From: Cloeon dipterum | Lineage: Eukaryota > Arthropoda > Insecta > Ephemeroptera > Baetidae | Direction of reading: 5' to 3' | NCBI RefSeq assembly: GCF_949628265.1 | Contig: NC_088788.1 | Span: 36,770,959 to 36,834,958, forward strand | Length of the DNA stretch: 64,000 nt | Shown: positions 27,457 through 60,805 of the stretch, one piece after another | Numbering within the stretch: the stretch's first letter is position 1 | How the letters are laid out: each line of letters starts with the position of its first letter | Notes under the pieces: generated by a model | The model's input: only the letters and a program-made list of their open reading frames with translations | Database searches by the model: none | Told to the model about the DNA's origin: nothing | Position numbers and translations under genes: made by a program

Positions 27457-28020
27457 TTCAACTCTCATGTGATTTAAACCTTTACTCTAAACTGAAATAA
27501 TATTTGATTCTGCTTGCAAATTTTTAATGTAATATAAGCGTTGTGAAGGCTGCTGCAATCACAGCAAATTCATAATTTATTATGAAAATTACTGTTTTCG
27601 ACTTTTTTTCATGCAGGATGTTGAATACGCACGGCGATGGCGCTTGCCTGCGCCGCATTTCAAATTATGATCAGCTGTGACTGCTTCATATAATTTATAG
27701 GATGCTGCTGGATACAGTCCTAACATTTGCGGTAACATATTAATTTAAAACTTTCGAACAAAATTTTTATCATTAAGTTTTGCAGATTTCTTTTGCGGGT
27801 ATTATAGTCAACATTTAAATAGATTATTGTTTTACTTTTAATGGTTTTTGCAGTCCTATTGGAGATTCTTGCAAGGGATTCTTGCGAAAGGGATGAATTG
27901 GATGGAATATTGCAGTTTAGGAAATTGAGTGTGGCACGTTGCATTGCTGAATGTTTGGAATTGATTTCGCATCCAGATCGATGCAGATTCGATGCATCCA
28001 CGGGAAAAGCTTTGGAGAAA
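27457..28020 (+). repeat. Segmental duplication, unit 1 (promoter and 5' half)
   Basis: This stretch is closely repeated at 32311-32850: identical runs include ACTCTAAACTGAAATAATA, TTTGATTCTGCTTGCAAAT, GAATACGCACGGCGATGGC and GATGCTGCTGGATACAGTCC. It covers the promoter region, first exon and most of the third exon of the gene below. Confidence 0.85.
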
Positions 28021-28904
28021 TTCAATAATGTAAATAAACATATAGAAGAACATGCTTACAATAAAAGGGTTTCCACGCAGTTACAGCAGGATGGATGCCC
28101 GAAATGCTATTACCCTTTCGAAAAGGCGAGAGATTTTGCCATTATTACCAGATCAAATCATATATTTTTTGTTGAATATAATTAAAACCAGGCTTCATCC
28201 TCGTTGTCAAATTAAAGAGAAATTCGTCTTCTTTATTTCTCGACCATATATATATATATATATATTTTTTGTTACAGTATGAGGCATTCAAATCTCTCAC
28301 GGCTTTCTGTAAATACAACGTTTATTGATTTCTTTATGAAACTGTTTTGAAAATTAAGCGAAAAGGATTAACACCACGATTTGTGGAAAAAAGCTCAATT
28401 ACGGGGCACTTGGTATGGGGGTAAGTGGTTAATTTGTGATAAAACAAACCCGGGAATAATGTTTTGCAGTCCGCCTTTGATTTTGGACTAATGGACTGCA
28501 GCATCACCGGTCGGGAAAAGATGCATTGGCTGCCGATGGATTACAACGAGGTCCGCTGCATCATTGAAGGCTTGCGTCTGTCGCATTTTATTTCAAAATT
28601 TTCATAATGATTTAAGAGATAAACGTCCCCCACAGCGGAAAACATACAAAAGCTGGGAAAACTTCGCGTGATGGTGTATAAAAGTGCATGCAGCAAAGAG
28701 TTCTTTTTCTGCGCCACGGACAACCCCCGTTCGCTGCGAGGATCATTTCTGGCCGCGGAGCTCAACAAAACCCACCCCGTATATCCAAACGGAACGTGCG
28801 CACATTTCGAGTACAAAATGCAGCAGAAGAAGGTCGTGGACATTCGACTGGAAATCGCAGACTGTAGAGTCAAAGTGTACATGTTTTGCGAGCTCAAAGA
28901 TTGA
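27702..28904 (+). CDS. Secreted 14-cysteine protein, paralogue A, 243 aa, eight exons
   Basis: Family not recognised. Exons: 27702-27731, 27786-27798 (13-base micro-exon), 27854-28029, 28081-28125, 28278-28308 (31 bases), 28359-28420, 28470-28575, 28636-28904; total 732 bases with every phase consistent. I built the model by aligning it with paralogue B, where the same eight exons occur with the same lengths or small in-frame differences. The N-terminus is a hydrophobic signal peptide (MLLDTVLTFAISFAVLL) assembled across three exons. Next is a module with SVARC-x3-C and DRCRFDASTGKAL that loosely resembles PAN/apple folds, then GCPKC, ICGKK and YNEVRCIIEG, and a final 89-residue domain (CSKEFFFCATD, GTCAHFEY, ADCRVKVYMFC). 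There are 14 cysteines. The intron after exon 4 would use a GC donor. Role unknown; secretion is the only inference I make. Confidence 0.7.
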
Positions 28905-30041
28905 AGGGAAAGTTTAACTAAAAAAAATCAAATGTTTACATTTGAAAATGAACACAATTTACCCTTTGATCTGTAAATTTATGACAGCTGATGCTTTGTG
29001 TCCCATATTATTTAAGCAATTTTCAACCCCACTTAAAATCGGTTTTCCCAACCATTTTGATGATGATTTCTTGAAACGAGCATTATAATAAGTTAAATTA
29101 TCCAAATCGGAAAAGCTTTAATGAAGTTCAATTATAATTATTATACTTTATATTACTTTATGACCTGCACTTCATCAAAGAACAATTACCCGCTTTGCAG
29201 AATGAATTTTGAGACAAACTCTATTCTTGGATAAACTTCAATTCCACGATTTAGTTACAGACCCAAATAAATAAAATCAGTGAATCTTTCGCAACCCTCC
29301 AAAATCCGAAATAGTTAAAATGATATTTAAATTTTGAATTTATATATTTAGTTAAAAATTATTTTCCGCAGCCTAAACTCAGATTAAGTGGAGGTTTTTT
29401 TTAATTTTAAGAAATATGCCTTTTGGAGATAAAATAAACGCAGCAGCATCCAACTTTCACCATCGCATCAATGCAATTTAGAGAACCTTTTCCATCATTG
29501 CGCAGTTTTATATATTAATCACAATTTCATACAGGGTTGAGGCGCATTTTACGTGTACTGCATTGCATGCATTATATTTTAAATTGTATTGTGGGTTTGT
29601 GAGTCGAGGAGCCCAGGCCGAGTGGAAAAACATCTTTATTGCTTTCTTAATCGTCTTTTAACTATCTTCTTAGCTGTAGTTTCCTGTAGATTTATATTTC
29701 ATTGATAAGGAGTACAAAATTGAAATACAAATAAATCACAAAAGGTGTACCCAAAATCCGGGTCTATTAATTATTATTTATTATGTTGCTGCTTCAATAT
29801 CTTTTCTCGCACGGAATTTCCTATTTGGAGTGAGTGCTTGACATGACCTTAATGAGTGAAGAAAATATTGAAATTGAAAAATTGACCGTCGTCCTGCGAG
29901 GTGGTAAGGGTCTGTGCACGTGCAGGTAGCGCGAGCTTGTCGCACAGTTACACAACCCTATGGCGATTCGGGATAGTATGAACTAGATTAATCATTGCGT
30001 CAGTACGAAGCGGGGAGCGTGGATTGCCACTTCCGCCACAT
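28905..30041. other. Spacer between paralogues A and B
   Basis: About 1.1 kb of AT-rich sequence. No coding exon, repeat array or RNA gene was identified. Confidence 0.55.
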
Positions 30042-30072
30042 TATTTAAACGACCGCTGCCTTGAACACAGCC

Positions 30073-31185
30073 ATGCTGAGCGCAGTTCTAGCATTTGTGG
30101 TATAATTTACGGCACAAAATTTGCTAGCAAAACTCAGATCAATATTTTGCAGATTATATTCCCGGGTAATTGAAGAAAAAACTGATATTTGTTCGGGATT
30201 TTTCATCCCCGTCATAGATTTTACAGTCTTCTTAGAGAGATCAGGAAGTGATTTTTGCGAAACGGGCGAAACGGCAGGATCAGTGCAGCACTTTAGAACA
30301 GTGAGCATCGCATCTTGCATTGCTGATTGTTTGGAATTGGAACCGAAGCAAGATGGGTGCAGATTCGATGCCTCCACCGGAAAAGCTGTCGCGAAATTCA
30401 ACAATGTACAAAATGTTTGTAGTAAAACTAACTTTTTACAAGGATTACATCAGCTTCAGGAAGATGGATGTCCAAAATGCGCTTTCCCTTTTGAAAATGC
30501 AAGCCCTTCATAATAACTACAATTATTTCATACCCTCATTTTGTATATAGATTGAATCTTTGAAGACTCTCACGCGCTTAGGTATGTACAATCTCTACAC
30601 CAATTATTATTTTTATTATATGACGCTCCTTCAATTTTAAAGTAAAAGTGAGAAATATTTCGGTTTGTGGAAAAAATATCGCTTTTGGAATATCAGGTTT
30701 ACCGGCAAGTTTGAGCTTGAAATACACATGCAGCTTTCTTACTTTCATCGCTTTTATAAGACCTCATTCGATTCTGTGTCACTACTCTGTGGAGTCATCA
30801 AAATTGACAGGAAGCAATGGTTTCCAAAGGATTACGACGAGGTCCGCTGCATCATCGAAAGCTTGCGTCTGTCTAAATATATTTTTTCATATTTATAATG
30901 AGATAATCATCCTAACCAGCGGAAAACATACAAAAGCTGGGAAAACTTCGCGTGATGGTTTATAAAAGTACATGCAGCAAAGAGTTCTTTTTCTGCGCCA
31001 CGGACAGTCCCCGTTCGCTGCGAGGATCATTTCTGGCCGCGGAGCTCAACAAAACCCACACTGTATATCCACACGGAACGTGCGCGCATTTCGAGTACAA
31101 AATGCAGCAGAAGAAGGTCGTGGACATTCGGCTGGAAATCGCAGACTGTAGAGACAACGTGTTCATGTTCTGCGAGCTAAAATAA
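30073..31185 (+). CDS. Secreted 14-cysteine protein, paralogue B, 242 aa, eight exons
   Basis: Exons: 30073-30099, 30153-30165 (13 bases), 30227-30405, 30454-30498, 30551-30581 (31 bases), 30643-30704, 30761-30866, 30920-31185; total 729 bases in phase. The signal peptide is MLSAVLAFVIIFPVFL. All 14 cysteines align with paralogue A (SIASC-x3-C, DGCRFDASTGKAV, GCPKC, VCGKN, YDEVRC, CSKEFFFCATD, GTCAHFEY, ADCRDNVFMFC). Two introns appear to start with GC: one after exon 4 (GCAAGC) and one after exon 6 (GCAAGT). The last exon is much closer to paralogue A (about 8 amino-acid differences in 89) than the other exons. A TATTTAAA element at 30042-30049 is a candidate core promoter, giving a very short leader. 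Confidence 0.7.
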
Positions 31186-32310: not shown

Positions 32311-32856
32311 AACTCTCGTGTGATACCTTTACTCTAAACTGAAATAATATTTGATTCTGCTTGCAAATTTTTAATTTAATAGCGTTGAAGGCTGCTACAA
32401 TCAGAGCATTTTCATTTATTATATTATTAAATTTACTGTTATCGAATTTATTTGTGCAAGATGATGAATACGCACGGCGATGGCACTTGCCTGCGCTACA
32501 TTTAAAATTTTGGTCAGCTGTGACTGATTCATACAATTTTTAGGATGCTGCTGGATACAGTCCTAACATTTGCGGTAACATATTAATTCAAAATTTTCGA
32601 ACAAAAACTTAAATCTTTTGCGGGTATCATAGTCATATATATTTATTTTACTTATTTAATGGCTTTTGCAGTCCTATTGGAGATTCTTACAAGGGATTCT
32701 TGTGAAGGGGATGAATTGGATGGAATATTGCAGTTTAGAAAATTGTGTGTGGCATCTTGCATTGCCGAATGTTTGGAATTGAGTTCGCAAACAGATCAGT
32801 GCAGAATCGATGCCTCCACGGGAAAAGCTTTGGAGCAATTCAAAGCACTTTTGAAG
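32311..32856 (+). pseudogene. Third copy of the 14-cysteine gene, truncated and broken
   Basis: Near-duplicate of 27457-28020. It keeps the start codon (32545), the 30-base first exon with its donor at 32575, and the third exon from 32672 (LLEILTRDSCEGDELDGILQ, SCIAECLEL, DASTGKALEQF). The acceptor of the 13-base micro-exon has been deleted. Joining the remaining exons directly shifts the frame. The homology ends at about 32840; a short divergent run reaches a GTAATT at 32857. Exons 4-8 are absent. I therefore call it a non-functional partial duplicate, related to paralogue A rather than B. Confidence 0.75.

Positions 32857-34094: not shown

Positions 34095-41337
<7,243 letters not shown>

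Positions 41338-51376: not shown

Positions 51377-60805
<9,429 letters not shown>

What the first reader, a model, noticed from the sequence alone, without database searches (positions are those of the whole stretch)
27702..31185. Unrecognised secreted 14-cysteine family with 13-base and 31-base exons
Two tandem genes share eight exons. Five exons (13, 45, 31, 62 and 106 bases) are exactly the same length in both and all phases match, although sequence in several has diverged strongly; all 14 cysteines align. Gene predictors would miss the 13-base and 31-base exons and the roughly 50-base introns, so the family is probably absent from annotations. The first cysteine module is loosely PAN-like; the rest is unknown to me. 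This is the best candidate here for something new.
Basis: partly seen in the sequence, partly recalled or inferred. Interest (0 to 1): 0.75.

Follow-up and report, generated by a model that had tools for sequence, protein, structure and literature searches.

The report
Divergent C-type-lectin-like secreted insect genes
Two neighbouring insect genes built from very small exons are real members of a family spread over this genome; half of the protein looks like a worn-down C-type lectin domain, and the front half is a small cysteine module of no family that we could name.

Summary
The gene models are real. Both genes give the stated eight-exon open frame with 14 cysteines, and each gene's exons are recovered when only the other gene is the guide. 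The same genome holds about 20 relatives with this layout. The family is not wholly unknown. Exons 6-8 encode a divergent C-type lectin-like domain (CTLD): the 8 cysteines correspond in order to those of lectin genes in this genome; exon order and phases match; the 45- and 31-base exons have 48- and 28-base counterparts in those genes; and profile comparison gives E 4.3e-6 with 0 of 100 shuffles as good. Against this, Pfam's Lectin_C reaches no family member tested, comparison with the 8-cysteine lectins alone is weak, and the two window genes do not stand out from decoys on their own. Motifs for sugar and calcium binding are missing. The PAN-like reading of exon 3 is not supported; that module stays unassigned, and a similar exon lies before a chitinase-fold domain elsewhere. 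Most likely a secreted, calcium-independent recognition protein; function is inferred. Verdict: new variant of a known kind.

The parts
27702..27731 (+). gene 1 exon 1 (30 nt), start of a probable signal peptide
   Evidence: 7 of 11 selected models start with a 27-nt exon
27786..27798 (+). gene 1 exon 2 (13 nt)
   Evidence: 13 nt in 10 of 16 relatives
27854..28029 (+). gene 1 exon 3 (176 nt): 4-Cys module
28081..28125 (+). gene 1 exon 4 (45 nt), CPKC
28278..28308 (+). gene 1 exon 5 (31 nt), linker
28359..28420 (+). gene 1 exon 6 (62 nt), start of the CTLD-like part
28470..28575 (+). gene 1 exon 7 (106 nt), CTLD-like part
28636..28904 (+). gene 1 exon 8 (269 nt), CTLD-like part and stop
30073..30099 (+). 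gene 2 exon 1 (27 nt)
30153..30165 (+). gene 2 exon 2 (13 nt)
30227..30405 (+). gene 2 exon 3 (179 nt): 4-Cys module
30454..30498 (+). gene 2 exon 4 (45 nt), CPKC
30551..30581 (+). gene 2 exon 5 (31 nt), linker
30643..30704 (+). gene 2 exon 6 (62 nt), start of the CTLD-like part
30761..30866 (+). gene 2 exon 7 (106 nt), CTLD-like part
30920..31185 (+). gene 2 exon 8 (266 nt), CTLD-like part and stop
32544..32856 (+). third, truncated copy: exons 1 and 3 recognisable, acceptor of the 13-nt exon missing, no exons 4-8 found

Best explanation
These are two tandem members of an insect family of secreted, disulfide-rich proteins that descends from the genome's 8-cysteine C-type lectin genes. The protein is: signal peptide (exons 1-2), a 4-cysteine N-terminal module of no known family (exon 3), a CPKC linker (exons 4-5) and a divergent CTLD (exons 6-8) that lacks the motifs for calcium-dependent sugar binding. 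The tiny exons 4 and 5 were inherited from the lectin genes. Shown by computation: gene models, coding constraint, the family, exon correspondence with lectin genes, profile similarity to CTLDs. Inferred: descent, secretion, disulfide pairs, fold, function. Most likely function: a soluble extracellular protein that binds a ligand through the CTLD surface without calcium, as part of humoral recognition (about 0.35). The confidence below is for the identity only.
For: The eight cysteines of exons 6-8 correspond in order to those of 8-Cys lectins; of three such lectins given to Pfam, two pass the Lectin_C cut-off and one lies just under it (30.0, 24.0 and 21.5 bits, cut-off 22.6). In 19 of 19 lectin loci the acceptor of the middle CTLD exon lies exactly 9 residues before a Cys in phase 0, and in 14 of 19 its donor lies exactly 5 residues plus 1 base after the next Cys, as in genes 1 and 2 (L061 and L074 are one gene). 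In 10 of 18 lectin loci run, exons of 48/28/62-68/100-106 nt were found in the same phases as 45/31/62/106 here (9 genes, L063 doubtful). hhalign of nine diverse family rows against 23 CTLD rows of the genome: E 4.3e-6, probability 86.8, score 40.1 over 126 columns; 100 Cys-kept shuffles reach at most 21.5; against the 16 last exons alone 38.1, shuffles at most 16.7; all 21 rows give 31.0, shuffles at most 23.5; PAN as control 11.0. With L102, a locus found through the family itself, the score is 45.2, E 4.8e-7. A lectin HMM scores two divergent members, L048 and C5:19565392, above all 3443 scored decoys. L101 keeps a VWT motif and lacks both the Cys of the first helix and the C-terminal Cys, which pair in a CTLD (pairing recalled). 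The family's C1 sub-cluster at 40.45-40.47 Mb lies among 8-Cys lectin matches at 40.27-40.93 Mb. dN is below dS in each of five pairs over pooled exons.
Against: Pfam Lectin_C hits none of the 16 aligned members, nor C5:19565392 and L048 given whole, nor L100, L101 and the bridging locus L102. Profile comparison with 8-Cys lectins alone is at chance for the first family set (13.4; 84 of 200 Cys-kept shuffles as good) and borderline for the diverse set (21.4; 2 of 100). Genes 1 and 2 themselves do not stand out from decoys with any of three lectin HMMs, and with the 8-Cys HMM only C5:19565392 comes near (2 decoys as good); the link runs through relatives. The first CTLD exon starts 7 codons before its Cys here, mostly 9 in the lectins, and ends 12 residues after it, 10-11 in the lectins. 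WTSG-, EPN/QPD- and WND-type motifs (recalled) are missing. AF2 of exon 8 alone is uninformative (pLDDT 36). Exons 5-6 differ much between genes 1 and 2 (dN 0.55, dS 0.76). No transcript data.
Confidence: 0.85

Rival explanations
1. A wholly new cysteine-rich family; the agreement with CTLDs in cysteine order and introns is coincidence.
For: No useful Pfam, NCBIfam or PDB sequence match; comparison with 8-Cys lectins alone at chance for the first family set.
Against: Phases and order of five exons agree, and two intron positions agree to the base; profile scores of 31-40 against at most 23.5 in shuffles; L100 and L101 keep a tryptophan at the WTSG place.
Confidence: 0.08
2. A PAN/apple protein: exon 3 with exon 4 forms a PAN domain and is the binding part.
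For: C-x3-C in a predicted-helical stretch followed by C-x-F looks like PAN by eye.
Against: None of 27 PAN_1 and 2 PAN_4 places lies in a family locus; profile score 12.4 over 13 columns, reached by 10 of 100 Cys-kept shuffles; Pfam finds no PAN in 13 members.
Confidence: 0.1
3. Same identity, other role: a structural protein of cuticle, mucus or gut lining, not a recognition protein.
For: The window neighbours are cuticular protein genes.
Against: Relatives lie on four contigs, away from this neighbourhood, and the parent genes are lectins; neither point decides.
Confidence: 0.25
4. Decaying genes that are no longer expressed.
For: A broken third copy, a fragment with two stops at C2:24609529, an incomplete-looking L103.
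Against: Both window genes and 16 relatives give open eight-exon models; dN is below dS in five of five pairs.
Confidence: 0.05

Closest known systems
8-cysteine C-type lectin genes of the same genome (Lectin_C, PF00059; many at C1:39.8-42.9 Mb and C4:33.5-36 Mb)
   Same: Order of 8 Cys; a small C..C exon, a small linker exon and three CTLD exons in the same order and phases, two intron positions the same to the base; the family's C1 sub-cluster lies among them
   Different: WTSG motif and most of the sequence lost; one CTLD only; exon-3 module present; no Lectin_C match
Insect CTL-X class (CRD plus other domains; PMC10341621, passages seen)
   Same: A lectin-type domain joined to another module
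   Different: Modules listed in those passages are CUB, CCP, Ig, chitin-binding, F5/8 and EGF; neither half here is recognised by Pfam
PAN/apple domains (PF00024, PF14295)
   Same: Two of the four Cys of exon 3 spaced C-x3-C
   Different: No profile match
Micro-exon genes of schistosomes (listing only)
   Same: Secreted products from genes with very small exons
   Different: No relationship tested; here the small exons are shared with lectin genes

Membership tests
C-type lectin-like domain, homology | Profile similarity to CTLDs above shuffled controls | tested here: met
   Score 40.1, E 4.3e-6, 0 of 100 shuffles; weak against 8-Cys lectins alone
C-type lectin-like domain, homology | Cysteines at the helix, strand and C-terminal places of a CTLD | tested here: met
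   8 correspond in order; both of one presumed pair missing in L101
C-type lectin-like domain, homology | Double-loop fold | tested here: inconclusive
   AF2 on exon 8 alone: pLDDT 36
C-type lectin, Pfam Lectin_C | Score over the curated cut-off | tested here: not met
   No match in 16 members nor in divergent ones
C-type lectin, calcium-dependent sugar binding | EPN or QPD and WND-type motifs | tested here: not met
   Absent by reading of the 18 aligned members (motifs recalled)
8-Cys lectin gene lineage of this genome | Small C..C exon, small linker exon and CTLD exons in phases 0-0, 0-1, 1-0, 0-1 | tested here: met
   edges of the first CTLD exon differ by 1-2 codons
PAN/apple domain | Match to PAN_1 or PAN_4, or profile similarity to PAN domains | tested here: not met
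Insect CTL-X | Recognisable CRD plus a second known module | tested here: not met
   Neither half reaches a Pfam cut-off
Secreted protein | Cleavable signal peptide | not testable with these tools
   Hydrophobic N-terminus read by eye

The most novel reading that the evidence does not exclude
The exon-3 module is a new secreted domain that this insect lineage joins to worn-down carbohydrate-recognition folds: the degenerate CTLD here, and a chitinase-fold (GH18) domain at C4:4.756 Mb whose catalytic motif looks lost. The result would be sets of secreted binding proteins that are no longer lectins or enzymes.
Probability: 0.3. Interest if true: 0.55.

Novelty: new variant of a known kind. Interest (0 to 1): 0.36.

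Why it matters
It shows a lectin domain that a standard profile search no longer sees, yet can be recognised by exon plan and cysteines. Counts of insect lectins may therefore be too low, and tiny exons inherited from a parent gene can make a known fold look like a new family. The exon-3 module deserves a profile of its own.

Tried and rejected
PAN/apple reading: tested by Pfam, genome-wide PAN searches and profile comparison; not supported. Family searches: best chance-level hits were Thaumatin (E 0.0044, 1 of 13 members), PASTA-like (E 0.022, 1 of 16), an HIV envelope chain in the PDB (E 0.62) and an NCBIfam model (E 0.19); none is a lead. Profile comparison with 8-Cys lectins only was at chance and is told as evidence against. 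AF2 on pieces that the window encodes without splicing gave pLDDT 36 (exon 8) and 49 (exons 3-4 with intron 3 read through); no fold search was run on such models. Paper searches: C-type lectin with mayfly, Ephemeroptera or Palaeoptera, and insect C-type lectin with PAN domain, gave nothing on this family; passages of the Cloeon dipterum genome paper (PMC7250882; 'lectin' occurs 0 times) and of a damselfly genome paper (PMC5381652; one mention of C-type lectins) were seen. Other listings: (no paper). The species was not identified: insect is inferred from gene content, mayfly is a guess from genome size and five large contigs.

Full report
What is there. The two tandem genes are as described: eight exons each, one open frame, 14 aligned cysteines, introns with GT or GC donors and AG acceptors. 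The shared exon lengths do not come from choosing splice sites by eye: with only the other gene as guide, an automatic spliced alignment returns the same eight exons for each gene, scoring 858 and 854, while 60 random windows give at most 15 (18 of them no model) and the reverse strands of 17 paralog regions at most -3 (8 no model). A truncated third copy lies at about 32544-32856. The last exon is 93% identical between the genes while exons 5-6 are 56-58%, and dS is 0.14 in exon 8 against 0.61 over exons 3-6, which suggests gene conversion at the 3' end.

Family. The window lies in a held 190-Mb genome of 10 contigs. The last exon finds 19 places at E 1 or better, 18 without a stop and one with two stops; the exon-3 stretch finds 22, of which 19 lie at these loci or the third copy and 3 are weak. 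Loci lie on contigs C1, C2, C3 and C5. With guides from the two window genes only, 16 of 17 regions give a model; exon 7 is 106 nt in all 16, exons 6 and 5 keep 62 and 31 nt in 14 each, exon 4 keeps 45 nt in 12, exon 2 keeps 13 nt in 10. In a second pass the members themselves served as guides, so its scores are not independent. More divergent loci came from later searches: L048, L100, L101 and the incomplete-looking L103.

Second half of the protein. The genome holds at least 129 Lectin_C places and at least 175 matches to one 8-Cys lectin domain; in both searches only 150 candidates were scored. Of three 8-Cys domains given to Pfam, two pass the Lectin_C cut-off and one lies just under it. 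Their eight cysteines correspond in order with those of exons 6-8. Their gene structure resembles the family's: a 48-nt C..C exon, a 28-nt linker exon, then CTLD exons, in phases 0-0, 0-1, 1-0, 0-1 (10 of 18 loci run, 9 genes, L063 doubtful; the other 8 lacked upstream sequence or gave no sensible model). The acceptor of the middle CTLD exon is 9 residues before the Cys in 19 of 19 loci, and its donor 5 residues plus 1 base after the next Cys in 14 of 19; L081, L082, L084 and L086 have a donor a few bases on, and L063 has no intron there. Genes 1 and 2 have these same two values. The first CTLD exon is less exact: it starts 7 codons before its Cys here and mostly 9 in the lectins, and ends 12 residues after it here and 10-11 in the lectins.

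Profile comparison. The family with L048 against 16 lectin last exons gives 32.7, 0 of 100 Cys-kept shuffles as good. Nine diverse family rows against 23 CTLD rows give 40.1, E 4.3e-6, probability 86.8, shuffles at most 21.5; all 21 family rows give 31.0, E 1.8e-4, probability 48.8, shuffles at most 23.5. Adding L102 to the lectin side raises the score to 45.2, but L102 was found through the family and Pfam does not call it Lectin_C, so this number is not independent. The PAN control gives 11.0. Against 8-Cys lectins alone the first set is at chance and the diverse set borderline (21.4, 2 of 100 shuffles). A lectin HMM run on six-frame translations of the window and 12 family loci gave one hit, in C5:19565392 (E 0.0038). 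With HMMs and decoys, L048 and C5:19565392 stand above all decoys for two of three HMMs; with the third, 8-Cys, HMM two decoys equal C5:19565392 and 287 equal L048; genes 1 and 2 never stand out. The link therefore runs from the window genes through divergent members to lectins, backed by the intron evidence. L101 lacks both the Cys of the first CTLD helix and the C-terminal Cys, as expected if these two pair; it could also be a decaying gene.

First half. Exon 3 holds four cysteines. PAN_1 finds 27 places and PAN_4 two places in the genome at the thresholds used, none in family loci. Comparison with nine PAN domains of the genome aligns only 13 columns, score 12.4, which 10 of 100 Cys-kept shuffles reach. 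A similar exon lies before a GH18 domain at C4:4.756 Mb (exon match E 0.12; GH18 by Pfam E 1e-8), where the stretch that should carry the catalytic acids reads DGVFIKWLYP (motif recalled). That exon in turn finds C4:13.262 Mb (E 0.0012) and, weakly, C5:11.197 and C5:11.213 Mb and three family loci, gene 1 among them (E 0.04-0.3). Whether these are one module is open.

How it probably works. Shown: dN is below dS in each of five pairs over pooled exons. Inferred: secretion, disulfides, CTLD fold, loss of calcium and sugar binding, binding of another ligand through the CTLD surface. Humoral recognition is the most likely role because the apparent parent genes are lectins in large tandem arrays, but nothing here tests it.

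Against the known. It probably works like an insect C-type-lectin-like protein and descends from such genes; it should not be filed as a C-type lectin, since the sugar- and calcium-binding motifs and the Pfam cut-off are not met. The nearest class name is CTL-X (PMC10341621, passages seen), but neither half is recognisable by the rules of that class. Novelty: new variant of a known kind.

Noticed in passing
window 32544-32856: Truncated third copy of the gene (exons 1 and 3), acceptor of the 13-nt exon missing, followed at about 33.3 kb by an apparently unrelated gene (ZAD-type start, recalled).
   Followed up: partly
window 655-25025: Cluster of at least nine similar cuticular protein frames of RR-2 type (family name recalled).
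   Followed up: no
window 34100-38000 and 54800-56050, minus strand: Serine-protease-like frames and frames with long Thr/Pro/Lys-rich linkers, perhaps clip-domain proteases (recalled).
   Followed up: no
L047 (C4:4756456): A 4-Cys exon like exon 3 lies before a GH18 domain whose catalytic motif looks lost, a possible chitinase-like lectin.
   Followed up: partly
G000 C1:39.8-42.9 Mb and C4:33.5-36 Mb: Large arrays of 8-Cys C-type lectin genes, with 48- and 28-nt exons in those examined.
   Followed up: partly
L101 (C1:5784440): Relative that lacks both cysteines of the presumed helix-to-C-terminus disulfide.
   Followed up: partly
window 28126 and 30499: Intron 4 of both genes has a GC donor; among relatives' models C5:19450959 has it too.
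   Followed up: no
window 28030-28080 and 30406-30453: Intron 3 is a multiple of three and stop-free in both genes; retention would add 17 or 16 residues, with one more Cys in gene 2.
   Followed up: no
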